Shown: piece after piece, positions 1 to 44,236 of the stretch | Numbering within the stretch: the stretch's first letter is position 1 | Layout of the letters: each line of letters begins with the position of its first letter | Assembly: GCF_027596085.1 (NCBI RefSeq) | Contig: NC_072465.1 | Location: forward strand, 16,289,207 to 16,353,206 | Origin: Anoplopoma fimbria | Lineage: Eukaryota; Chordata; Actinopteri; Perciformes; Anoplopomatidae | Direction of reading: 5' to 3' | DNA: 64,000 bases | Translations under genes and position numbers: made by a program | The notes under the pieces: model-generated | Told to the model about the DNA's origin: nothing | The model's input: the letters and a program-made list of their open reading frames with translations, nothing else | Databases searched by the model: none

Positions 1-1750
1 AATATTGGGAGTATTAATTGCATTATAAGTCTTTTCCGGACTTCTTGTGAGAAGCAGTCAACAGAACGATAAAGAGATTTCAGACAACCAAAGATTTTCT
101 TGGTGATTGCATTAATATGGGGTTTAAAGGATAGCTGAGAATCAAGCCAGAGGCCTAGATATTTAAATTCTTCAATTTTTTCTATTGTTGTTCCATCAAG
201 AAGACTAATAGACCAGTTACTTGACAACAAATGATCAGGTTGAGTACAAAACAACATACTATATGATTTTTTCTTATTCAACAGAAGCTTATTTGAAGAG
301 AACCATATTTGAACCAAATTAAAATCAGATTGTAGAGAGTGTTGAATTTGTAAGATATCAGAGCTGGATGAGTATAATACAGTGTCATCTGCATATAAAT
401 GAATTTGAGAGTCCAAACAGATTTGAGGAAGATCATTAATAAAGATCGAGAACAAAAGAGGACCTAAGGATGAGCCTTGTGGAACACCTTTATCATTGAT
501 CTTAAATTCTGATAGACTTCCCTGAAAGGAGACACACTGACTTCTAAAATGAAAAATATTGTTAAAAAATAATAGAGAGTTAGTAGAAAGACCAATAGCA
601 TACAATTTATCTAAGAGAAGATAATGATCGATCATATCAAATGCTTTTGAAAGGTCAATAAATATAGCACCTGTAGGCATCTTGCTGTCAGCTGCTGACA
701 ATATGTCATTTGTAAATTTTAGAAGAGCAGTGGTGGTAGAGTAATTAGGTCGAAAACCTGATTGGTGTGGAGATAATATGTTATTGTCTGCAAGGTATTT
801 AGATAATTGATTAAATATTAGTTTTTCAAATATTTTTGCTATACTGTTGATAATTGAGATTGGTCTATAATTGTTGGTGTCTGAGGTGTCACCTCCTTTA
901 TGAAGAGGGGTTACTCTAGCGCTTTTCCATGATGACGGTGTTTCACAAGTTGCGAAAGATAAATTAAATAAATCAGCCAGTGGAAATGACAAAACTTGAG
1001 AGGCAAGTTTAAAGAACTTAATTTCCAGACCATCTGGACCAGCACTGCATCCAGAGCTTAGACTATCAATAACCCGCTGAACATCAATTGGAAAGATAGT
1101 TTTAAAGCAAAAAGAGCTGCCACACCTATTCTGATTCGAGGTAAGACCAGAGTAACCAGATAAAGAGCTACCAATTGTAGCGAAGTGCTGGCTAAATGCC
1201 TGCAATTAATAAAGGTTCACTCACAGTTTGATTATTTAGTCTAATATGCGTTGTAGGGCTTTTTGTGGATTTATTGGTTATACTATTGATTCTCTTCCAA
1301 AATTTCTTCGGGTTCTTAAAATCAGTTGATAAGCAGTCTTTATAGTAATTTCCTTTAGCATTTCTTGTGTTGGTTTTACATTTATTCCTTAGCTCCTTAT
1401 AAGCATTCCAGTCAGCAGCATCATTTGTTTTACGGTATTTTTTCCAGGCCTTGTCTCTTTGTTTGAATAAGTGTATGAGATCTCCCTTGATCCAAGGTAG
1501 ATGTCGACCCTTGACCATAATTGATTTCAAAGGAGCATGCTTGTTGATTATCTCGACAAACTCAGTATAAAATAAATTCCAAGCGTCTTCAACAGATGGG
1601 ATTAATTTGAATCTCTCCCAATTTATATTTAGTATATCCTGAGTGAAGTGTTCAGGGTTAATTTTATTAAATTGTCTTACTTTAATCATTTTAGGAGGAA
1701 GGCACTTTGATTTTCCAAATACAAAAAATCATAGAGTGGTCACTAAAAGA
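1..1750 (-). mobile_element. Non-LTR retrotransposon (CR1/L2/Rex1-like), 5'-truncated
   Basis: The minus strand encodes a non-LTR polymerase. At 1192-1689 lies the basic linker between endonuclease and reverse transcriptase, starting MIKVRQFNK and ending at a TAG. A frameshift follows, and the polymerase core then reads to the window edge. I see IFIDLSKAFDMIDH near 630-680, VPQGSSLGPLLF near 430-490, and the catalytic YADD box near 370-395. Upstream, only the last residues of the endonuclease (a SDHS motif followed by IFCIWK) remain at about 1700-1750, so the 5' end is truncated there, as is usual for target-primed integration. The element lies in the same orientation as the retrovirus it entered. 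Its 3' end is outside the window. The clade is from memory and not tested. Confidence 0.88.
1192..1689 (-). pseudogene. LINE ORF2 linker fragment between endonuclease and RT
   Basis: This 165-residue open stretch is the Trp/Lys/Arg-rich segment that precedes the polymerase in CR1/L2/Rex1-type ORF2 proteins. It includes WERFKLIPSVEDAWNLFY, LPWIKGDLI and a KFWKRIN motif. It stops at a TAG at 1192-1194, and the next part of the protein continues in another frame, so the copy is dead. The ATG at its start is internal to the family protein and is not a true start. Confidence 0.8.
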
Positions 1751-2962
1751 GTCAGGTTCTACATAAGTACACATGTATTCTCCTTCGTCTTCCCGAGTAA
1801 CGTTACGCAGGACAAGTGAACAATCATCTGTACTTTTCTTCCACCTCATCTCATTAAACAAAATATACTTCCTTTGATCACGAGGCACAATGTCATCTTC
1901 AGGTCTTGTCAACAACAAATCTTCACCACGACTATTCTCCCATTTGGGAGGCAAGTTACCACCACTGTTCCATCTCCCACATTGACAAGGAAGGTAAGCT
2001 GTTCCTCCTAACCTAACTCTGATCACAGTACTCAAAGGAGGTGACGTTATAGATACCATCTGAGGCGCCTTTGTAGTTACATGTGATGCATTTATACTTC
2101 CAATAGCTTTTGCCATTGAAAGAGTAGATTTCTCTTCCATTTTCCCAGCTTTCGTCTGGCGAGTTGATGTCATTGTTGTCAATTCTCTTGTTTCCCCAAC
2201 ATCTTGGAAGTCCATACTCTTATTCCCCCCTAGTATCACTAGAGACACTATGCGAACTCTAAATCCTAACTCGGGCCGCTTACTTCCAATATGTCGATCG
2301 TAAAAAGTACACCTGTAATCACCCTGATCTTCCTGTTGAGGCTTGTGTACATAGAGACTACAGTCTCCCTCACCCTTCACTCTCCTTTTGTCATTAAGTA
2401 ATGTATATTTCCCTACTGGTAATGTCTCTGACAGATCTAGGATCTTACCATGGCCATCTTTCCACTGAACTCTGAGTTTCCCTTTACCACTATTTTCTTC
2501 TGTACACTGACATGGAAGCCGAACTGACTCCCCCAAGGTTGCTTCAACCCTGGTTCTTGTAACGGTTTGGTTTGACTCTTCTCCTAACTGGTCTCGGGCT
2601 CCTTTGTCTAACTGGATCCCTGGGTTGTCCTGCAGCGGAGTCACCGCCCTTTGATATCTCTGGCGCTTTGCAGGCAACTGAAATAGGTCCCGCTGGGTTT
2701 GGGACATGTTGAAAGACAATGTCTCTAAATCTTCTTTCCTGTCCATCAACTGCCGAGTCATTTCTGGCATCATCAGGAATATGCACAGAAACATCAGCAT
2801 TGTCCACAACTTGGACGATCTCTCCTTCTGAATTCTGACTCTGGGGATTTTCATGCATCTCCCTCTCCGGTGTGTGTTCTTCCACATTGTCTTCGGGCTC
2901 TCTTGAGCCTTCAACATCTTGGATCGGTGAATGTGGCGCCTCTTCACTTGGCGCTTTGACAC
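1691..2962 (-). CDS. Two-Ig-domain ORF in the retroviral env position, 3' end replaced by LINE
   Basis: The 423-codon ORF starts inside the integrase tail in another frame (overlap 2544-2962), as retroviral env genes often do. Residues 51-66 (KLWTMLMFLCIFLMMP) are hydrophobic and could be a signal peptide or anchor. Residues about 138-238 and 310-400 are two V-set-like Ig domains. Each has LPCQC, a core Trp (W167, W341), a DCSL motif, and the ED-x-G-x-Y-x-C signature ending at C218 and C398. The extra cysteine pair (C153/C201, C328/C381) is shared, so the domains look like internal duplicates. They are joined by a Thr/Ser-rich linker, with N-glycosylation motifs in the ORF and no intron. Codons after about 402 (DSFSDHS...) come from the LINE. 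I see no furin site, fusion peptide or transmembrane subunit. It may be a captured host receptor-like cDNA; its function is unknown. Confidence 0.8.
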   Translation of the reverse strand: MSKRQVKRRHIHRSKMLKAQESPKTMWKNTHRRGRCMKIPRVRIQKERSSKLWTMLMFLCIFLMMPEMTRQLMDRKEDLETLSFNMSQTQRDLFQLPAKRQRYQRAVTPLQDNPGIQLDKGARDQLGEESNQTVTRTRVEATLGESVRLPCQCTEENSGKGKLRVQWKDGHGKILDLSETLPVGKYTLLNDKRRVKGEGDCSLYVHKPQQEDQGDYRCTFYDRHIGSKRPELGFRVRIVSLVILGGNKSMDFQDVGETRELTTMTSTRQTKAGKMEEKSTLSMAKAIGSINASHVTTKAPQMVSITSPPLSTVIRVRLGGTAYLPCQCGRWNSGGNLPPKWENSRGEDLLLTRPEDDIVPRDQRKYILFNEMRWKKSTDDCSLVLRNVTREDEGEYMCTYVEPDSFSDHSMIFCIWKIKVPSS

Positions 2963-4235
2963 AATGTGATAAATGATACCACGTGGGAGACCCTTTAACC
3001 TGGACCGCGGTTCCAGTACTGCGAACTACTTCAAATGGTCCTTCCCGGCGTTCGTTATACCACTTCCGTCTAAACACCTTCACGAACACCTTGTCTCCAG
3101 GTTGCACTGTGATCCTTTTTTGCTCATTGAGCTTCTCCTGCACCTCCTCCTTAGTTTGCCTGTCAGACACATATGTGGATATTCTTTTATGTAGATTAAC
3201 CATGTATGTGACATATGTTTGCATTTCATCTTCTAAAAGGGCCAGACTTGGACCTTTCCCACTTGTCCGCAGACAAGGTGTTGGCATCAGTCGTCCTGTA
3301 ACCAACTCATGAGGTGTCATATGTAAATCGCGGAGCTCACTAGAGCGACATACCATTAACGCCAATGGAAGCGCTGCTATCCAATTTAACCCTGTGTGCT
3401 GGCATATTTTGACAATCCGATTTTTCAGAACACCATTCATTCTTTCGCACATCCCTTGACTTTGCGGATGATAGACTGCACCAAGACGCTGTTTAATTCC
3501 TAGTTTTTGCAAAATCAATTTCACCGTCTTATCCACAAACTCTTTCCCATTGTCTGAGGATATTCGATCTGGAAGTCCCCACCTGCTTATGACCTCTCTA
3601 CATAAGAACTTGGCGACCGATTGAGCATCTTTCCGTTTTGTTGGACAAGCCTCAGGCCATCGTGAAAATCTGTCCACAACGACTAGCATGTATCTTTTCC
3701 CTTCAATCGGTTTTATCATGTCAACATAGTCCACAACTAGTTCACGCATAGGACCCCTTGGAGTTGGGATGTAGCCAGGAGGAACCGTCACTCCCCTCCG
3801 AACATTGTTTTTCAGACAGATAGTGCACCTGCTTATGACATAATCAATCTGTTCAAGCAAACATGGTGCCCAAAAACCATACTCTTTTGTAATCTTTCTC
3901 TTAACTTCCCCCCTTGCAACGTGAGCTAAACCATGCGCCTCCTGAATCATCAGACCCAACAGGTCTGGAGGTGATAGTATCAGCCCCTCATGATTTCTCC
4001 AAAGTCCAGTAGAATCTCGGGTGGCACCTCGGTCTAGCCACAACTGTTTGTCCATTTCAGGAGCAGCTTCCTGCATTAAAATCACATCTTTGAGCGTAAT
4101 TTTGTCTTCCAAGTTCACTTCATGCGTGACGAGAAGAACTTTGCCCAATTTATCTGCTCCTGTGACTGCTCTTGCAGCTTCATCGGCCGCTCTATTCCCT
4201 TGAAACCCTTGATGCATCCCTCCTATGTGCTGCAC
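2544..4235 (-). pseudogene. Retroviral integrase with end of RNase H
   Basis: The 563-codon frame begins with the last piece of RNase H (GNRAADEAA, residues 13-21). The zinc-binding HHCC module follows (H101, H105, C137, C140). The catalytic core has D169, D228 (SSDNGKEF) and E264 (MCERMNG), with 35 residues between the last two, so the DDE triad is intact. A chromodomain-like GPF module lies near residues 385-420 (KWYNERREGPFEVV). The long, acidic then basic tail (residues about 425-563) overlaps the start of the Ig ORF. The ORF is open, but it is cut off from the rest of pol by a frame change near 4200-4235, so it is part of a broken polyprotein. In an intact virus the enzyme inserts viral DNA into the host chromosome. 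Confidence 0.9.
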
Positions 4236-4611
4236 ATTTAGCTATTGCTATTTCTTTAGGCTTCATCATAGCATGTAGCAATTTCATGATCTGAGCGTGA
4301 TGCTGTATCGGCGAACCATCCGTTTTCTTAAACCCTCGGTTCTTCCACACTGCTCCAAACAAGTGGCACACATTATGTGCATATGCAGAGTCGGTATATA
4401 TCGTCACTCGCTTCCCTTCTGCCAACAAACACGCTTCAGTTAGCCCCACCAGCTCAGCAAGTTGTGCCGATGCAGGCTGTGGTATCCCTTCAGCCTTCTC
4501 AACTGCAAATCCAGTTCCTTGGGCTTTTACTACCGCATAGCCAGCACTTAATTTATCGCCCACACGATAACAAGACCCATCAGTCCAATACTCCAGGTCC
4601 ACCACATGCAA
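4192..4611 (-). pseudogene. Retroviral RNase H fragment
   Basis: This frame holds the RNase H core: WTDGSC with the first catalytic Asp near residue 12, an AELVGLTEA helix supplying the Glu, and TDSAYA with the third acidic residue near 74. The frame runs out just before the final GNxxAD motif, which lies in the integrase frame (2544-4235). A frame change of one or two bases near 4200-4235 therefore splits the domain, and another near 4600-4620 separates it from the upstream connection domain. RNase H removes the RNA strand during reverse transcription. Confidence 0.85.
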
Positions 4612-5195
4612 TGGGAGAGCTTGTAAATCTGATCTAAGCCTAGAGTATTTCTCTGCTTCTTGAACACAATCGTGTGGCTCACCATCTTCTGGAGTTGCAA
4701 ATTCTCAGCTGGATTTACCGTAACACACCTTGCTAGGGTAACATCTTCCTGCTCTAAGAGCCTATGATAGTCTCTGAGCCTAGACATAGTCAAGTTGTTC
4801 TTACCATAATTCAAAAGATTTCTGAGACTATGATGTGTAAGAATTGTCACTGGATAACCCATTGTTACAGATGATGCTTTATTGTACATTAGAGAAACTC
4901 CCACCATAGCTCTGTAACACAGTGGTAACCCTAGCTCCACTTCTGAATAAGCCGTGGAGTAATATGAAATGGGTTGAGGACTCGTCCCCGTACCCGTTGG
5001 TTGACAAAGAACTGCACATGCATGTTTACCCCCAGTAGAAGTCGATACATATAACACAAAATTCTTAGAGTAGTCTGGAATTGCTAGCGCCGGAGCCTCT
5101 TGCAACTTCTTTTTTGTTGTTTCAAATGCCAAAAGGCCATCGTGTGTCCAGGACAGATTACAGTGTAGCTTAGCATTCCCAGTACTTTTAATCAT
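4548..5195 (-). pseudogene. Retroviral RT connection domain fragment
   Basis: This is the segment between polymerase and RNase H. It contains LAFETTKKKLQEAPALAIPDY and a region with YYSTAYSEVELGLPLCYRA, typical of the thumb/connection region of gamma-type RTs. The frame begins at 5195, directly at the stop of the upstream RT frame (the sequence CTATGA overlaps stop and ATG), and ends after a divergent tail where the RNase H frame takes over. I read this as indel decay rather than programmed frameshifting. Confidence 0.75.
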
Positions 5196-6160
5196 AGTCT
5201 CAAAGGCCCCGTCAAGCTAGCATAATCCTCAACCCATGCTGAAGAATATCCTGCAATACCAAGAAATGTCATCATCTCTCGGACTGTTCTGGGTTTTGGA
5301 GCCTTGCGAATAGCCTCCACGTGACTATCAGAGATGCTTCTGTGTCCCTGCGTTATTGTTTGACCCAAATAAGTTACCTTCTCCTGACAATACTGCAGTT
5401 TCTTCAGAGAGGCCTTGTGACCCCTCTCTGCCAGTATTTGTAGCAATTTAATTGAGTCCTTATGACATGTCTCCTCATCTGGTGAACAAATGATGATGTC
5501 GTCCACGTATTGAATTACATTGCTTTTTAATACCTGCTCTATCCCATCCAAATCGTCTTTCACTATTTTGTTGAAAATGTGAGGACTATGTTTGAACCCT
5601 TGTGGCAGTCTCTCATACTCATAAGATTGTCCGTTGTACGTGAACCCAAATAAGCTTTGGCTTTCCCTACTAAGTGGAACACTGAAAAACGCACCACATA
5701 AATCTAACACTGTGAAATGTGTCGCATTTGGCGGAAGTTGGGCTAACAAAGTATGTGGATCCGGCACTTCTGCTGGAAAATCAACCACCACTTCATTGAC
5801 CGCTCTTAAATCATGTGTCAGGCGATATGAATTATCTGGCTTCTTTATCTGCAACAAAGGCGTGTTGCTCTGGGGATCCTGTGTTATCCTTAAAACACCC
5901 GCCTTAAAAAGTCGTTTTCTCCCCTTTTTTCCCTTCTTTTGCTCTGCCTTGTATGTGGATACAAGTACCAGCATTATTTTAATTACATCTGGGTTAAGAG
6001 TCCCCTCCACTGGCCATGGTTGGTCAATTTCAGGCCAGCGTTTGTGCCATTTTTCCGATATTTTTGCAATGTTTGCGATGCCTCTAATTAAAGGATTATT
6101 CTTCTGTACTATATCAACAGGAGTGATTACTTTTGGATTTTTAGTGTTCTTTTTCCCCAT
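5192..6160 (-). pseudogene. Retroviral reverse transcriptase palm/fingers
   Basis: The 322-residue frame carries the RT motifs in order: KKPDNSYRLTHDLRAVNE (fingers), VLDLCGAFFSVPL with the first catalytic Asp at 153, LPQGFKHSPHIF at 185-196, YVDD at 218-221, and a YLGQ/FLGIAGY tail. It ends in TGA at 5194-5192, where homology continues in another frame. No protease is recognisable upstream, and residues 1-75 are not typical. The active-site residues themselves are intact. Confidence 0.9.
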
Positions 6161-8190
6161 TATAACGGCTTCCTTATGTTTCGTTATTGTACTTTAAGAA
6201 GTAATTGCTAAAATTAAAACTACTCAAGGCTATTTAGATTACTTCTTTTTTTTTTTTTTTTAAACCCAATTATCCAATTATCCAATTATCCAATTAGCTA
6301 ATCAACAAATCAACCAATTACCCAATATTCAGCTCAAATCGTCAAACAGACACCATATTGAATGTCCACCACAGCACAGATCAGAACAAACCACGCACAA
6401 TAACAAAAATGGACGTCTGTAATTGTCAGCAGAGGTTAGACCAAACAATCATATGCCACTAATCAATTAAATGCATTAACTAGTCAATCAGTTGCCAAGT
6501 TTTCTATTTATTTATTTATTTATTTCTCCTAACTGCCTAGAGCATGTATTCTTTCATGTGTATAGGAGCAGGTCAGCATCCTCTTAGGCTTATAAATGAA
6601 AGCAGGTTTATATGTGTACCATCAATATTACCTACGACTGAGAACACATACAAATATGGAAAATGCAGGTTTTGTTTTTGCCAAAGAGTCTGTGGATAAA
6701 GTTGTACCGGCCTTTAGTAGATTGAAACGGAAGCCTCCCCGTGGACGTCAGCAAGCCACACTCCGTGATGTGCCGGCCCGCTGCCTTGCCTCCCGTCTCA
6801 ATTCTCATTCACCGTAAATGACATAACAGACAAGAAACAGGCAATGATTTAGTCTCTTGTGAACCCATTAGGTCCCTTTAACAGCATCATACATTTTATT
6901 CCTAAATTAAACCCCTACCTAAACATTGTAGTATTTAGTGAACCCCGACTGGACCAAACAGTTCAAACGGCAAAGGACTTCTTTGTAACTCCCAAGAAAG
7001 TGTCACCGAACGCCTTTTTTGAGACGAGTGAGGGGGGGTTTCAAATGCTACCCTTCTTAAACGAAGTTCATTGTGCATTTAACAGCTTATTTATTATATT
7101 ACGTCCCTTTTAAGAAGAGCTCATGTTTTATTTACTAACTCGTTCAATTCATTACGTCTTCTAAAAAGAAGCTCATCTATCCTCACAAATTATTAAATGT
7201 CCCGTTCTCAAATCACCACCTATGCATGTTTATTCAATCATAATGTGTTTTTCTTTCTTTTAACTTTAACACATCTATTCTTTTCCTATGCATTTTATGG
7301 CACACAGCTGGAACACATCAGCAGCCAAGTTTCACACACACACATTCAGCACTCCTACGCACACCCATTCTCCCCTGTTTCTTCTCATCCCAAAGTAAAC
7401 ACACACACTCATTCTCTTCACCCGTTTTAGATCCCTTCATTCATACAGCATGCTTATTGCCGCTATTTCCTTATTTTTTATAAAATTTATGCTACCTCTG
7501 AGATGTAGATTTCGATGAGAGGCTGCATCAGACACCGTTCGTCAACAAATGTCAGAGTGGTAACAGTCAATCGAATTGTGATTCTACACTCTCCAGTTAT
7601 TAAACTGACCATAAGATGTCGTTCCAGGTTTTACTCGGCCCGTACTACATGCTCCTGCTCTTGAGGGCTCTATCCTATCCGATTTTGCGGCTCAGTCATA
7701 TGATCATTTCCTTTATTTCCTTTATTTCCTTATTTCCTTATCACTTTTTACATTTATTTATTCAAATTACCTGGATCCAGGTTTCCCCAATTTTGTCTTT
7801 CTAACTTAATTCCGGACTATGTCAGAGCCATCGTTACGCAGTGGCTAATATGCATGTGTCTTACCGTTAAGAAGTTGAGGGCCCCTCTTCAATTAATCTT
7901 GCACGATACTGTTTAGCACACCTTATCGTTACCATGAAGCTATTCTAAACTATTCCTAGTATTTCTCATACTTCTTTTCTTCACTTTTTATCTTCCCCCT
8001 TTTTACATTTAATTTAGCACGGAGCCTCACTTTAAACATCAAATCATCAGGACGTGTCCATAACAAGAAGATTCTTAATTTACGGTGTGACCAAACAACT
8101 CCACATAACAGCCCCAATTTATGACAAGCATTCAATCGAGTGCGCTCACCGTATGTGAAGTTGTAGCAGAAAACCGCGAGGCCACCTCCG
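6161..8190 (-). other. Retroviral leader and gag interval without a recognisable ORF
   Basis: About 2 kb separates the primer-binding site from the RT frame. This is where gag and protease should lie, but both strands show only short frames. The interval has a pure T run at about 6245-6262 followed by short CCAATTAT-type tandem units, and pyrimidine-rich low-complexity stretches at 7200-7440 and 7690-7760. I see no major homology region, no CCHC zinc knuckle and no DSG/DTG protease motif. Gag is either too decayed to recognise or has been replaced. Confidence 0.5.
8149..8150 (-). promoter_or_regulatory. Candidate 5' splice donor of the retrovirus
   Basis: The minus strand reads ACG|GTGAGC about 40 nt after the primer-binding site. 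This is a good donor consensus in the place where retroviruses splice to make the subgenomic env mRNA. If it was used, it would allow the Ig ORF near 2960 to be expressed from a spliced message. Usage is inferred. Confidence 0.4.
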
Positions 8191-8208
8191 ATCCTGTTCG
8201 TGACGCCA
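8191..8208 (-). other. Retroviral primer-binding site
   Basis: Reading on the minus strand, TGGCGTCACGAACAGGAT begins with the TGG that pairs with the tRNA CCA end. It lies four bases (AATT) beyond the CA that ends the LTR, and the central GAAC matches the T-arm complement. I did not assign the tRNA. Confidence 0.7.
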
Positions 8209-8212
8209 AATT

Positions 8213-8530
8213 TGTCGTATCTTTCATGCGACAGTGCTGTTGTAGTGATGAGAAAGGATGCTCCGCAGACACTGTTCTTGCTGGTATAATAAAGTTTATT
8301 ACAAACAAGCAACACATGTCATGACGGACGTCTAGAGCGCCCGGAGGTCTCGAGTCGAATCTGTGAGTTCCCTCACTTTCGAGCTCTTACACCTCATTAT
8401 ATAGGATACATGTTAATCACATTTGGGGGGGAAAGTCAAGATAATGTATGTGGCTCCGTCATTATACACACTTAATCACATTTGGCCCCTGGTATCCTGT
8501 CCATCTGCTTCCTGCACCCTATGTAAGACA
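8213..8530 (-). repeat. 5' LTR of the endogenous retrovirus
   Basis: The 318-bp segment starts TGTCTTAC and ends ATACGACA on the minus strand, giving the TG...CA ends with a short inverted repeat (TGTC/GACA). It holds a TATA-like TATATAAT at 8403-8396 and an AATAAA at 8300-8295, about 70-105 bases apart, which suits a U3-R-U5 layout with initiation near 8370. The primer-binding site follows directly. The partner 3' LTR is not in the window, so the ends rest on motifs only. Confidence 0.72.
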
Positions 8531-8580
8531 AAAACACTTAGGTCCTTCGCTGTATTGTGCAAGACCTGAAAATATACCAC

Positions 8581-9379
8581 ATCAGCTTTACTCTTTTTCC
8601 ATTTCTGAAGCGAGGGTCTAAGGACAGAGGGTTTTGTATGCTGTACCGGTTGTAAAGCCCCTTGAGGCAAATCTGTGATGTTGGGCTATATAAATAAAAT
8701 TGATTCGACTTCTAGATAAAACTACAATACAATAAGATTTGTTTCAAATCAGAAAATAGGAAGCATGCAGCAGAGAAAATGCTGCACTCCTGTTAAGCCA
8801 AGAGATTTTACTCTGTTAATAACTGTCCGTCTATGTTTTCCTGCAGAGATCCCTGGGTTTTTGTCGGAGGATGAGTGCCGTGTGGTAATGCAACTTGCAC
8901 AGCTAAAGGGTCTAATGGAGAGTCAGCTAATGGTGCAAGAAGGCCAGGAGGAGCTGGCCAAGGAGCTCAACCTCAGCCCAGAGGAGATATTCAACCTTCT
9001 GGATATCAACCAGGATGGACAGTTGCAGCTCCATGAGGTGTATGTCAGTTTGTGGAATCATGGGCATGTACTGTATGACTACAGTCGTTCTTTGGTTCAG
9101 AGTTCGTTAACTCACCCTGTCTTTACTATTGTGCCTCTAATAGATACTGACTCATTCTCGAGTGAGGGACGGCATCTGGCTCACACCGGAGAATCTGCGA
9201 GAAATCTATGCTGGGCTCAAAGCTGACAAGGATGGCAATGGTAAGAAATCAACTTTGCCCTTTTTTACAGAAATGTATCTATTTACATAGCTATTATTTT
9301 GAAAAAAAAATTGTGTGCATATTTGTATTTTTAAAATGTAAGTCTAATTTGTGAGAAAGTCTTTAACATTTGTATACCG
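8581..9379 (+). pseudogene. Duplicated P4HTM fragment (exons 3-4 with flanking introns)
   Basis: This block repeats 27829-28622 in the same orientation. I count about five single-base differences and one small indel. It contains P4HTM exon 3 (8847-9037, EF-hand sequence [13 protein letters not shown]) and exon 4 (9144-9240), both with intact splice sites and apparently unchanged exon sequence, plus the intron between them. The presence of introns shows a DNA-level duplication, not retroposition. The other P4HTM exons are absent, so it cannot encode the enzyme. Identity starts 50 bp from the retroviral LTR and stops sharply near TTTGTATAC at 9379. Confidence 0.93.
8600..8716 (+). repeat. LINE 3' tail inside the duplicated block
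   Basis: The motif TTGTAAAGCCCCTTGAGGCA followed by GGGCTATATAAATAAAATTG is the 3' end common to an L2-type fish LINE. The same tail is at 27848-27965 in the parent P4HTM intron, and a fuller relative is at 49236-49490. Confidence 0.7.
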
Positions 9380-12230: not shown

Positions 12231-23712
<11,482 letters not shown>

Positions 23713-26368: not shown

Positions 26369-26550
26369 CAGTGCAGTGCGCAACGACTTAATTTCTGCAG
26401 CTGAGAATCTGGCTTTCTTTTTTTTAATTAAACTAACATCTGTCAGTCGGCACATCTAAATAAGCAGCCAGCAAACGCTCACCCTATCGTTGGATTAATC
26501 AGATGGACTTTGCTGTTGAGGAAGTATCAACTCGGTCGTAAATCAGGAAA

Positions 26551-29500
26551 ATGAATGACAACCAGGAAACATCAGATGCTGAGGAAGACACTTCTCCGTC
26601 CAGGAGCGCGACCTTGCCGCTCCGGCCGCCGATCGACCGCCTCCCTTGCAACAAGAGCAGCGTGTGCTCCCGCTCCTACTTCGTGGTAGTGATGGTCTTT
26701 TTTCACGTATACATCATTAATGTTATATTACTGCTATTTTACGTTCACTACAACAGCGGGCAGGAAGATGCCAACCAGAGTCGTGATGCTCCGAGCAGTA
26801 ACCACCAGCACCCCGAGCCGCGACGTCCGCCATCAAAGCCTGAGTTTCTGCGTGATGTTTCCCTAACAAGAATCGAGGGGATAAGGGTGAGTAATGTGCT
26901 GATGCATCACTCCCCTCTATTTCATTTGTACCCTGTGTTTCTCTCTCACACACAGTAATCACCACCACATCACTGCTCTGATTGATCTCTTAGGTGGGAC
27001 ACGTCCAGAAGGTGTCACTAATGCCAAACAAAGTGCATGAAATGCGGACTCTGAGTCTGAAACCACTGCTGTTTGGTAAGAGCCGAGACAACCCATGTGT
27101 CAAAACAAATTTGCAGCACACCAGCATGAGCCTCGAGTGGCCAAAGAGTCTTCCTCTTCTTCTGATGATGAAAGCAGACATGCATTCACCACACACTCAC
27201 CCTTGTTTTCATCTTCATCACTTCCACCCCTATACACATAACCTAGTTTGAACATATGCGGATGCTCAGGTCAATCAAGGCTACATGAAAAAGGTCAATA
27301 AGTCCTGAGGCAACTACCCCAATGAAGGGCTAATAGAAATAGATCTGGACCTAACACAATTCAAAACATACATTTAGTCATTAGATGTGTTGGAGTAAAG
27401 ATGGTACGAACATTTTGAAGTTGAAAAATGTAAAGTCTACTATATTGTTTGTTTTTGTCGTTCTCTTTATTTGTGTTTCGTTTTGGTAACAAGCATTTAA
27501 CTGTTTATGTCTTACTATGATTTTGACATAGAAAGACGTAAACCCTTGATATGAATGGTTCTAATCTGCGTGGTTGGCTCTGCAAAACATGTGATCAATT
27601 AAATAATTGTCTATATTTGGGCTACAGCTAATTTTTTTGCTGATTATTTTCTCTATGAAATCGTACAAAATAGACAAACATGTCAAATTTGCAGAGGCAA
27701 ATCCTTCAAGTGAAGTAGCTGGAAAAGTTTTGCATTCCTCCTCTATGGATGAAATGATTAATCGAATATCAAAATAATTGCTGATGAAGTTTCTATTAAC
27801 TGACTAATTGATTAATTGACTTATAAGATCAGCTTTACTCTTTTTCCATTTCTGAAGCGAGGGTCTAAGGACAGAGGGCTTTGTATGCTGTACCGGTTGT
27901 AAAGCCCCTTGAGGCAAATCTGTGATGTTGGGCTATATAAATAAAATTGATTCGACTTCTAGATAAAACTACAATACAATAAGACTTGTTTCAAATCAGA
28001 AAATAGGAAGCATGCAGCAGAGAAAATGCTGCACTCCTGTTAAGCCAAGAGATTTTACTCTGTTAATAACTGTCCGTCTATGTTTTCCTGCAGAGATCCC
28101 TGGGTTTTTGTCGGAGGATGAGTGCCGTGTGGTAATGCAACTTGCACAGCTAAAGGGTCTAATGGAGAGTCAGCTAATGGTGCAAGAAGGCCAGGAGGAG
28201 CTGGCCAAGGAGCTCAACCTCAGCCCAGAGGAGATATTCAACCTTCTGGATATCAACCAGGATGGACAGTTGCAGCTCCATGAGGTGTATGTCAGTTTGT
28301 GGAATCATGGGCATGTACTGTATGACTACAGTCGTTTTTTGGTTCAGAGTTCGTTAACTCACCCTGTCTTTACTATTGTGCCTCTAATAGATACTGACTC
28401 ATTCTCGAGTGAGGGACGGCATCTGGCTCACACCGGAGAATCTGCGAGAAATCTATGCTGGGCTCAAAGCTGACAAGGATGGCAATGGTAAGAAATCAAC
28501 TTTGCCCTTTTTTACAGAAATGTATCTATTTACATAGCTATTATTTTGAAAAAAAAATGTGCATATTTGTATTTTTTAAATTTAAGTCTAATTTGTGAGA
28601 AAGTCTTTAACATTTGTATACACTTCACTGAAAGTGCTAGCTAGTTTGTGTTTAAACGCAGTAAAAAGTGCATACATTAACTGCACAGCATAACTCAGTA
28701 GTGTTACAATCGCATTGTTTAAATCATTCTTCATGTGGTTCCCAACCTTTTTGGCTTGTGACTGCTTAAACTGAGACAATGTCTACTTGTCTACGATGGA
28801 CACAAGAGTAATTTTTAGAAGATATACAGTATATAGACATATGTATTGAATATGAATGTGATACAACCTTTAGTCTTAAACTAAACATGTGGAATTGGAA
28901 ATGCATCAGGAATCTAGAAAGGGCTGCAGGTCTCATTCAAACACAAGTATATTATTCACAGTATATAAAGGAGTTCAATTATTGTAGTAATTGTCAGTAA
29001 TGCAAGAAATGAAAACTTACGCCAGGCATCAGAATATGAACATCTCATATTTTGGACAGGTTTGCTGAGTCTAGAAGAGTTCAGGCTTCTGAGCAATGAT
29101 GCCTTCCAGCGCTTTCTGCTTCAGCGAGGGGTGAAGAGGAGTCAGCTGGTGAGGAACAGCAGACACACCTGGCTGTATCAGGGCAAAGAAGCACATCAGG
29201 TCCTCCAAGACATCAAGGCGAGGCAAGCAAGTCAAACCATGTTCTCAGATTGCTGTAGTGCTAGAATAACTGAAATATTTTTCGCAAATTGAAAGGACAG
29301 TTTTAACATCTTTTTCCCAGACTTCTAATTTTTTTCGTTACCTTTCTCCAACAAAGGGTGACTCGTCTCACTCGGCTCCCACCCGCATTAGTGGACCTCA
29401 GTGAGCCCCTCCAGGTGGTTCGCTATGAGGAGGGAGGACACTACCACGCCCACCACGACAGCGGCCCTGTGTATCCTGAAACAGCATGCACACACACGCG

Positions 29501-41290: not shown

Positions 41291-41898
41291 TTTTAGACCA
41301 AAGAGAGCAGAAGAGCTGGAGACTATGGTAAGGCTTGTACAAATGAATGCTGTATAATGTGAACAGATGTAGTGCTAACTTATGAAAGTGCACATATTAT
41401 TTGGACAATGGTGAATTTTGCTCGTATTTGTTATATCCAAAGCTAATTAGATATACTCCTTAAATGTGAAGTTCATGGAAATATGTTAACAGGTTTGCCA
41501 TTACTTAAGCCATTATAGGAATGTGGTTTTGTTTGACTTAAATATGCTTTTATGGTTAACATCTTTGTAATGCAACATTGATTACTGGTATTATTGGTTA
41601 ATCAAGTATTACAACAATTACTTAATTATTTTACCTACATCATCAGGATACCAAGATTACCAAATGAGCATAAATAAAGAGTTGATTTGTCTAGCAGTTA
41701 TAGCATTACAAATACATTTCACACCAGCATGTGCTTATTAAACTGCGATTTGATATCATAGGGATGGTTGCTCAGTATTTGTTTATGTTTTTTGTATTTG
41801 TTTTTCCAGAGACAGCGTCCTGACCAGTTGTTCAGAGTGCATAAAAAATACTTTGTAACTTTTTAAATATCATTGTTTCTAAAAGAAGTTGAGGCAAA

Positions 41899-44236
41899 AT
41901 GGATCTTACGGCCAAACATGGGCTGGTGCTGCTCGACCAGCTGAGGAAGATGAGGGAGAGTGAGCATCTGACAGATGTGGTGCTGGTTGCTGAGGGCATC
42001 AGCTTTCCATGTCATCGGGTCGTTCTGTCCGCCTTCAGCCCATACTTCCGGGTAATGTTCACATGCGGCCTCCGTGAGTGCAACAGCAGAGAAATATTCC
42101 TGCGTGACACCCCTGCAGACAGCCTGGCCCTCCTCTTGAACTACATGTACTGCTCCGATCTTCCTCTCACTAACGCCAATGTACAAGGCATCTCTATTGC
42201 AGCCTTTCTCCTGCAGATGGATGACGTCTTCACTCGCTGCCAGCTGCACATGACCGAGAACATGGACGCCTCAAACTGCCTTGGTGTGCATTACTTTGCC
42301 CGTGACCTCGGTGCAGAGGAACTGGCTGACCATGCTCAGCGCTTCCTGCGGCAGAACTTTGTCCAAGTCTGCCAAAATGAGGAGGTCCTGGAGCTGGAGG
42401 CCCATCAGCTGGGGAAGCTCCTGACTTCTGATGACCTAAACATTTCACGAGAAGAGACCATCCTGGATGTGGTCCTACGCTGGGTCAGACACAGCACTCT
42501 GATGGATGGAGAGGTCCGTATTCTGCACCTTCCAGAGCTCCTGAGGAAGGTCCGTCTGCCACTGATAAATGCCGACTACTTAAAAGAGGCAATGAAGAGA
42601 AACACGGCCCTGCTGGCAAACGCTGAGTGTCTAGAGATTCTCAATGAAGCCTTGGAGGCCACAGCGATGCATCCAGCAGCTGCACCACGCCAACTCAAGC
42701 TGCGGTACGGCATGGAGACCACAGATCTGCTGCTCTGCGTTGGAAACGACGGAGCCGGGATCAGGTCTAGATACAGCAGCTACACTGAGCGCAGCTTTTG
42801 CTACGCCCCGTCCACAGGCCGCATCTACTACATCACTTCACCTCGCTATGCAGAGGCTCTGGGGTATGTGTGTGCCGGGGTTGTAACTGAAGGAAATGAC
42901 ATTATAGTGGCAGGAGAAGTAGGTGCACGAAGAATGGCCCGACAGAAGGACATTAATGTTGAGATTTACAGGTAAGACATTAGGTGACACACTTGATAAC
43001 TACATGCACACACATGGCACTGATTGTTATGTTGGGTTGCCAGGTACAAAGTAGAGGCCCAAGGAAGCTGGGAGTGCCTGACGTCAGCAGAGTACCGTGA
43101 TTCATACGCTCTGGGCTCACTGGGTGACACTCTGTACCTGCTGGGTGGGCAGATGAAGCTAAAGAACCAGGTTCTCATCACTAACTGTGTGGAGCGATGG
43201 TCTCTGCAGGGAGGACCCTGGCGCAGTGCAGCACCCCTGCCTCTACCTTTAGCCTATCACAGCGTGGTCAGGATGAAAGATCGCCTTTATGTGATGGGTG
43301 GTCGATCCCCACAGGTGATGACAAAACATATTTACGCGTGTTAACTTCTGAGCAATAACTTTGAAATCTAGAGAATCAGACTTTAACACATTTAACATGA
43401 GCTCAGTGTCTGTATGCGGCTCCTCTCTGATCGCACCTGCTCTGCTTTGTCAAACTCTTCCACCATCCAGTCATACCGGATGGATGATGAGCCCGACCGT
43501 CTTAGTAACCGCCTCCTGGAGTATGATCCGAACACAAATAAGTGGACAGAGCTGAGTCCCATGAAGTTCTCAAAGTACCGCTGCAGTGCTGTTGCACTGA
43601 ATGGCGAAATTTTTGTGATGGGTAATATTAATTGTTCTGTTGTTAGTCTTAAATCTCTCTTGGAATGCATATGATTTGATGATTCTGCAACATAAATTAA
43701 GTTGCATGGATTCCTGTAACAATCATTTTTTCAAAAGGATTCTATGTGTTGATATTAAAAAAAAACTATTTTGCAGGGGGGATTGGATGTGAGGGTGTGG
43801 ATCGTGGACAATCACGCCGCTGCCTCGACGCTGTAGAGATCTACAACCCAGATGGAAATAATTGGAGGGATGGACCTCCTCTCCCATCTGCACAACTGTC
43901 ACTGCGCACCAACGCCTCAAACGCAGGAGTGGTGGGAGGCAAGATCTATGTGTGTGGATACTACAAAGGAGCAGGTAATGAAGAATAGTTGTATCCAATG
44001 AATGAAGAGTTTTTAAGATGACTCCAAGTGACTACATTACCCTTTCTGTTTCTTTACTACCTTTAGATCGTCATGATGATATAACCAAAGAAATTTTGGA
44101 GCTGAACCCCTGGGAGAACCGGTGGACGGTGGTGGCTCGGCACGCTCTGATGCATGACAACTATGACGTCTGTTTAGTGGCAAATCTCAACCCAAGGGGA
44201 CTAATGTCCCCACCTGCAGACTTGGTTAACCAGTGA
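41899..44236 (+). CDS. kbtbd12: Kelch repeat and BTB domain-containing protein 12
   Basis: This is a BTB-BACK-Kelch protein of the type that serves as substrate adaptor for Cullin-3 ubiquitin ligase. Five coding exons (41899-42971, 43044-43314, 43471-43621, 43777-43974, 44067-44236) join to 620 residues, against about 623 in human KBTBD12. The BTB domain is at residues about 20-125 (LTDVVLVAEG, FPCHRVVLSAFSPYF), the BACK domain is about 130-240 (NCLGVHYFARDL, DDLNISREETILDVVLRWV), and Kelch blades run from about 290 (YALGSLGDTLYLLGGQ, YVMGG, NAGVVGGKIYVCG). The end DNYDVCLVANLNPRGLMSPP matches the family's end closely by recall. A noncoding exon at 41810 (after TTTTTCCAG) continues into the coding exon. 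Its substrate is not known from sequence. Confidence 0.95.

What the first reader, a model, noticed from the sequence alone, without database searches (positions are those of the whole stretch)
1750..2962. Retroviral env slot occupied by two immunoglobulin domains
Directly after and overlapping an integrase frame with an intact DDE triad is an ORF with two V-set-like Ig domains (residues about 138-238 and 310-400). I know of no standard retroviral env built this way, and none of the env hallmarks (SU/TM cleavage site, fusion peptide, CX6CC) is visible in the part that remains. The overlap with pol in another frame, the hydrophobic segment at residues 51-66 and a candidate 5' splice donor near the PBS all suit an env-like expression mode. 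A virus carrying a receptor-like or decoy Ig protein, or using it for attachment, would be new to me.
Basis: partly seen in the sequence, partly recalled or inferred. Interest (0 to 1): 0.86.

Follow-up and report, generated by a model that had tools for sequence, protein, structure and literature searches.

The report
Retroviral envelope with antibody-like head
In this fish genome a family of retrovirus remnants carries an envelope gene whose outer half encodes two antibody-like (immunoglobulin) domains on a mucin-like stalk joined to an otherwise recognisable viral fusion protein, an envelope design that we did not find described.

Summary
On the minus strand an ORF (3025-1755) overlaps the 3' end of an integrase ORF and encodes two V-set Ig domains (Pfam V-set 1.2e-17). 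It ends where a LINE is inserted. Beyond the LINE, outside the window, the same provirus continues with mucin-like stalk, SU, RKKR site and TM. So the Ig domains do not replace env: they are its N-terminal half. Of 21 Ig-bearing loci in this genome I fetched 19: 19 of 19 match stalk and SU, 15 of 19 (window included) carry leader, Ig1, Ig2, stalk, SU and TM, and one has all six in one 1065-codon ORF. Relatives with Ig are annotated in halibut, a characin, lumpfish, whitefish and rabbitfish. Here the Ig-bearing integrases form one clade; the nearest relatives examined have conventional CX6CC envelopes without detected Ig, while the Ig lineage's TM has CX9C. Best reading: a class I-like fish retrovirus lineage acquired a tandem V-set plus mucin module that probably forms Env's attachment head. 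Architecture is well supported; function is inferred, selection on Ig is not shown, and the literature search was incomplete because the library mostly failed.

The parts
8213..8581 (-). 5' LTR (369 nt, TG...CA); 3 of 369 mismatches to the provirus's own 3' LTR, which lies outside the window
   Evidence: ends read; 4-bp duplication CTGA at both ends and an empty site in the window's segmental duplicate near 27832
8191..8208 (-). primer-binding-site-like stretch starting TGG, 4 nt after the LTR; tRNA not identified
   Evidence: read; tRNA search not answered
5192..6193 (-). reverse transcriptase ORF piece
   Evidence: Pfam RVT_1 7.4e-31; best solved relatives labelled RT/RNase H p80 and Gag-Pol, 3.1e-49
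4548..5216 (-). connection / RNase H-like ORF piece, other frame
   Evidence: RT_RNaseH_2 4.2e-13
4192..4704 (-). RNase H ORF piece, other frame
   Evidence: RNase_H 1.2e-18
2544..4241 (-). integrase ORF with H2C2-like motif, DD35E core and MLV-type C-terminal domain; its tail overlaps the env leader
1755..3025 (-). 5' half of env: leader, Ig1, linker and most of Ig2 (frame stays open to 1691 in LINE sequence)
2768..2809 (-). hydrophobic core of the presumed signal peptide after a basic stretch
   Evidence: 12-residue hydropathy up to 2.57
2285..2554 (-). Ig1, V-set; extra Cys pair in PCQC (2515-2504) and DCSL (2365-2354)
1755..2053 (-). Ig2, V-set, cut by the LINE after the F-strand Cys
1..1754 (-). 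LINE-type retrotransposon inserted in env, about 2.6 kb in all, continuing beyond the window; A-rich 3' end and short target duplication
   Evidence: RVT_1 3.9e-37; junctions

Best explanation
This is the 5' half of the envelope gene of a class I-like fish retrovirus. Its Env is one polyprotein: basic leader and presumed signal peptide (overlapping pol), two tandem V-set Ig domains, a Ser/Thr-rich stalk with N-glycosylation motifs, an SU core, an RKKR site, and a TM with a CX9C loop and membrane anchor. SHOWN: the architecture, its repetition in this genome, its presence in proteins of other teleosts, and Ig-less conventional envelopes in the nearest relatives examined. INFERRED: a common ancestor gained a host-type V-set module (later duplicated) with a mucin-like stalk at the N-terminus of an ordinary ~550-aa env, and the Ig head now serves attachment to a cell-surface partner while SU-TM does the fusion. 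The window copy is dead: pol is in several frames, gag is not recognisable, and a LINE splits env.
For: Window provirus has LTRs, 4-bp duplication and empty site. Its env continues past the LINE in two frames; its TM is at C17:16286361-16287014, 98% identical to that of the open copy. 19 of 19 Ig-family loci fetched match stalk and SU; 15 of 19, window included, have all six segments. One copy is a single 1065-codon frame with two V-set stretches (8.2e-17), RKKR at 844 and a hydrophobic stretch 986-1033. Breaks fall at different places in other copies. Other-species proteins against the open copy: Ig1 63-75% (3 rows), Ig2 49-71%, SU 53-78%, TM 81-93% over 86 aa or more; P0002 runs from the pol tail into the Ig frame. 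TM of P0012 resembles solved viral fusion subunits (best 3.2e-5). Four Ig cysteines invariant in the 11 rows of A4. Ig-bearing integrases lie on one side of a branch with 98/98 support. L042 and L054-L057: conventional env features, no Ig found.
Against: No expression, binding or entry data. Nonsynonymous/synonymous ratio among copies is near or above 1 in much of env (leader 1.48, Ig1 0.90, Ig2 0.56, stalk 1.44, SU 0.76, TM 0.46, whole 0.93; false frames 0.41-5.01), so selection on Ig is not shown. Pfam TLV_coat is not reached (P0011 14 bits, cut-off 22.5; none for the open copy), CX6CC is missing. Models are weak: mean pLDDT 50 (Ig2 part better) and 35 (SU-TM). P0019 shows no Ig and some rows one Ig. 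No hydrophobic fusion peptide is evident right after RKKR. Absence of Ig elsewhere rests on scans that can miss broken Ig: the scan missed the broken Ig of L039. The host source of the Ig module was not found.
Confidence: 0.62

Rival explanations
1. The Ig head is an immune decoy or checkpoint mimic rather than an attachment head: displayed on Env, or shed by cleavage at the conserved KR between stalk and SU, it engages host immune receptors.
For: V-set plus mucin layout recalls TIM-type immune receptors; a profile of the Ig rows finds TIM-4 and TIM-3 (4.9e-5, 6.4e-5) as the best matches that span the domain, below contactin-1, JAML and neurofascin rows that match on shorter stretches. K and R at the stalk/SU border are invariant in the 15 rows of A3.
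Against: The matches are weak and shared with many Ig proteins; no interface tested; that the KR is cut is not shown, and the open copy has no KRE there (looked for KRE only).
Confidence: 0.22
2. The Ig part is a passive, protruding shield or spacer that tolerates change, with receptor binding done by the SU core alone.
For: Ig number varies; two copies (L012, L013) have a deletion removing most of Ig1-Ig2; near-neutral substitution ratio in Ig1.
Against: Four Cys and other Ig core columns are invariant over 11 rows including the IN-64% relative L019; the deleted copies may simply be dead; Ig2 is present in five named species or more.
Confidence: 0.15
3. A host Ig gene fragment lying by chance beside a provirus, unrelated to env.
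For: Env is broken in this copy and no env hallmark is inside the window.
Against: 28 matches, grouped by me into 21 loci; pol and SU are matched in all 19 loci fetched; P0002 shows the pol-Ig order in another source. The two loci not fetched (C2613, C1004) match at 90-94%.
Confidence: 0.01

Closest known systems
Gammaretrovirus/class I type Env (Pfam TLV_coat; syncytins, MLV)
   Same: SU-TM order, RXKR cleavage site, TM similar to viral class I fusion subunits, position after and overlapping pol
   Different: 1065 codons in the open copy (others up to 1094 with a stop); N-terminal tandem V-set domains and mucin-like stalk; no SU CXXC and no TM CX6CC; below TLV_coat cut-off
Conventional envelopes of related elements in the same genome (L042, L054-L057)
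   Same: integrase kin (45% in L042; 32-48% in matched pieces of L054-L057); TM and, in L054-L057, the end of SU homologous (about 30-33%; L042 TM 35%)
   Different: no Ig found; CX6CC present in all five (L042 read from Cys positions); TLV_coat 2.7e-9 in L042, 7.8e-16 in L054, 5.2e-16 in L056 (L055 and L057 not scanned)
TIM-type receptors (V-set plus mucin stalk)
   Same: domain order V-set then mucin; TIM-3 best, TIM-4 and TIM-3 among best, all weak
   Different: two V-sets; four cysteines per domain against six (TIM pattern recalled, from no call); fused to a viral fusion protein
MLV receptor-binding domain (recalled: Ig-like topology)
   Same: beta-sandwich at the tip of a retroviral SU (recalled, from no call)
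   Different: not a V-set by sequence (recalled); here Pfam V-set 64.5 bits

Membership tests
Retrovirus provirus (class I like) | paired LTRs with short target duplication | tested here: met
   369-nt LTRs, 3 mismatches, CTGA duplication, empty site
Retrovirus provirus (class I like) | RT, RNase H and IN domains | tested here: met
   in several frames, so pol is broken
Retrovirus provirus (class I like) | gag | tested here: inconclusive
   no open run over 94 aa in minus 8240-6151, no profile run there; other copies' gag not examined
V-set Ig domain | Pfam V-set/I-set above curated cut-off, canonical Cys and D-x-G-x-Y-x-C | tested here: met
V-set Ig domain | V-type fold | tested here: inconclusive
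Retroviral Env, class I fusion type | cleavage site, TM ectodomain like known fusion subunits, membrane anchor | tested here: met
   RKKR, anchor and PDB matches
Retroviral Env, class I fusion type | hydrophobic fusion peptide | tested here: inconclusive
   none evident directly after RKKR in the stretch printed; an internal one is possible
Gamma-type Env (TLV_coat, CX6CC) | CX6CC in TM and CXXC in SU | tested here: not met
   Cys 935 and 945 (CX9C), no CXXC in SU of the open copy; TLV_coat below cut-off in P0011, no match in P0007, P0012, P0017 or the open copy
Epsilonretrovirus or other named genus | position in a pol tree with named viruses | not testable with these tools
   no reference pol set available; only relatives in this genome were treed
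TIM receptor family | six-cysteine V domain (recalled) | tested here: not met
   four Cys in each Ig of the open copy

The most novel reading that the evidence does not exclude
A retrovirus lineage spread through teleosts built a new kind of entry glycoprotein by mounting a tandem, host-derived V-set plus mucin module on an ordinary class I Env, giving it receptor-like attachment and letting the SU-TM linkage motifs (CXXC/CX6CC) be lost.
Probability: 0.5. Interest if true: 0.88.

Novelty: new variant of a known kind. Interest (0 to 1): 0.78.

Why it matters
Retroviral Env proteins are classed by SU type and TM motif; none known to me carries bona fide V-set domains. If the reading holds, a retrovirus has captured an immune-type recognition module and uses it, or displays it, at the virion surface, and Env can trade its conserved SU-TM linkage motif for another. 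Because Ig-bearing and apparently Ig-less envelopes of related elements lie in one genome, the order of events can be tested directly.

Tried and rejected
Rejected: Ig as unrelated host insertion. Rejected: TIM membership (cysteine number, recalled for TIM). Without result: Ig ORF and env alignment in viral contigs (no relative); SU-TM structure (pLDDT 35, not used further); substitution-ratio test, uninformative because copies are alike (pairs 88.7-99.9% identical); a test of fixed differences between groups was coded but not run. The TM profile and P0007 found no TM in L018 or L019, so whether that Ig-bearing sister still has SU-TM is open. Controls against my scans: the Ig profile scan (open runs of 40 aa or more) missed the broken Ig of L039, and the window's Ig query missed L018 and L019 (1e-4), so 'no Ig' is firm only where env is a long open frame (L042 as far as fetched, L054). 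Host source of the Ig: I recognise no host gene among the 28 matches (19 of 21 loci looked at); a profile search of the protein database could not be made (database switched off).

Literature: answered searches are 20 papers; 0; 1; 494, 25 listed; I saw listings and abstract starts, and none of those reports an Ig-bearing retroviral env. PMC10072453: passages only (zebrafish Env38, conventional). PMC6001957: term counts only (immunoglobulin, Ig-like, accessory 0 each). PMC10435555: passages only (immunoglobulin and Ig-like 0). Two ids were not held. Novelty is therefore stated with reserve.

Full report
What is in the window. On the minus strand, pieces of RT, RNase H and IN in different frames are followed by an ORF, 3025-1691, that overlaps the IN ORF by 482 nt and holds two V-set Ig domains (V-set 1.2e-17; two stretches). 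Ig1 starts about where pol ends. IN has a zinc-type motif and D-35-E spacing. The ORF is longer than chance gives (444 codons, about 423 of them proviral; best of 2000 Markov-1 resamples 247). Ig1 and Ig2 are 39% identical and share a second cysteine pair, PC-x-C and DCS.

The provirus is real. The 5' LTR (8581-8213) and the 3' LTR, outside the window, differ at 3 of 369 positions; both ends carry the 4-bp duplication CTGA, and a segmental duplicate in the window (about 26468-28621) keeps the empty site. RT best resembles solved entries labelled RT/RNase H p80 and Gag-Pol (3.1e-49), then MLV-type RT (row 1mml is named MMLV); IN's best solved relatives are PFV integrase. The copy is dead: pol is in several frames, no gag is recognisable, and a ~2.6-kb LINE with an A-rich end lies in env from 1754 on.

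The Ig ORF is half of an env. Beyond the LINE, locus L020 shows the rest of the same env in two frames: end of Ig2, mucin-like stalk, SU, RKKR, TM and anchor; its TM lies at C17:16286361-16287014. One search found 28 Ig matches, which I group into 21 loci; one search warns that its counts are lower bounds. I fetched 19 of the 21 (not C2613 and C1004). At over 60% identity 19 of 19 match the stalk and SU, and 15 of 19 (window counted with its in-window part) carry leader, Ig1, Ig2, stalk, SU and TM; L012 lacks Ig2 and most of Ig1, L013 lacks Ig1, Ig2 and TM, L014 lacks TM, and L039 lacks leader and Ig1 at that cut-off. One copy is open over 1065 codons with both V-sets, RKKR at 844 and a hydrophobic stretch 986-1033. 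In others the frame is broken at different places, as expected of one ORF decaying after insertion.

Other fish. Before it was switched off, the protein database gave 6 proteins for the Ig query and 20 for the SU part of one of them (P0001, P0005 and P0006 are in both), 23 in all. Named sources: Hippoglossus hippoglossus, Colossoma macropomum, Cyclopterus lumpus, Brachyhypopomus gauderio, Sebastes umbrosus, Coregonus suidteri, Siganus canaliculatus. P0002 runs from an MLVIN_C stretch (21.6 bits, below the cut-off 29.2; a fragment) into the Ig frame, so the pol-Ig order is seen in another source. Identity to the open copy: TM 81-93% over 86 aa or more, SU 53-78%, Ig2 49-71%, Ig1 63-75% in the three rows that have it (lower values are Ig1-Ig2 cross-matches), stalk 30-75%. 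As I read them, P0019 has leader, stalk and SU without Ig, P0013 Ig1 only, P0022 Ig2 only; gene models may skip parts. P0003, P0005, P0012, P0013 and P0023 are below the V-set cut-off taken singly.

Where the Ig came in. In this genome L018 (IN 77%) and L019 (IN 64%) carry an Ig in the same place: L019 one V-set domain, 2.5e-7; L018's is broken by two stops but 80% alike over residues 77-336 of the L019 ORF. L019's leader-Ig ORF aligns with window-family copies over residues 4-300 (31%, best 1e-12). Eight further elements from the rve list (L040-L047, 2.7-2.8 kb each) showed no Ig match; seven have IN 25-28% identical and may not be close kin; L042 (45%) has a conventional env with CXXC, RRRR and CX6CC in a long open frame. 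Four elements chosen by TM similarity (L054-L057; IN 32-48% in pieces) have CX6CC, an RXRR-type site and no Ig match by profile or by tblastn of the open env; L054's env frame is 554 aa, the others are in shorter frames. These scans can miss broken Ig: the profile scan missed L039's and the window Ig query missed L018 and L019. On an IN tree the Ig-bearing rows form one side of a branch with 98/98 support, L042 next (14 rows, near-copies included; L019 rests on 19% of columns; L054-L057 not in it). One gain is the simplest reading. In the Ig lineage TM has CX9C, not CX6CC, and SU lacks CXXC.

How it may work. The TM part matches solved viral fusion subunits (best 3.2e-5), so fusion is likely done as in other class I Env (inferred). 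The V-set domains sit at the N-terminus, on a Ser/Thr-rich stalk with N-glycosylation motifs, where a receptor-binding head would be. I think attachment most likely (inferred), a decoy role next. K and R at the stalk/SU border are invariant in the 15 rows of A3, a possible second cleavage, unproved; KRE is absent there in the open copy. Selection on Ig is not shown: ratios among copies are leader 1.48, Ig1 0.90, Ig2 0.56, stalk 1.44, SU 0.76, TM 0.46, with false frames from 0.41 to 5.01.

Noticed in passing
window 8581-9377 and 27828-28621: Segmental duplicate, 99% identical over 797 nt; the provirus sits in one copy and the other is the empty site.
   Followed up: partly
L012, L013: A deletion removes most of Ig1-Ig2 while leader, stalk and SU remain, so Ig number changes within the family.
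   Followed up: partly
alignment A3, P0011 residues 40-41: Invariant KR at the border of stalk and SU in 15 rows, a possible second cleavage site.
   Followed up: no
L033, L011, L016, L017 3' LTRs: LTRs only about 77% like the window's although env is mostly 96-99% alike, which hints at LTR turnover or recombination between subfamilies.
   Followed up: no
window 15583-15948 and 41893-42972, + strand: Host genes: a myosin head exon and a BTB-BACK kelch-like exon.
   Followed up: no
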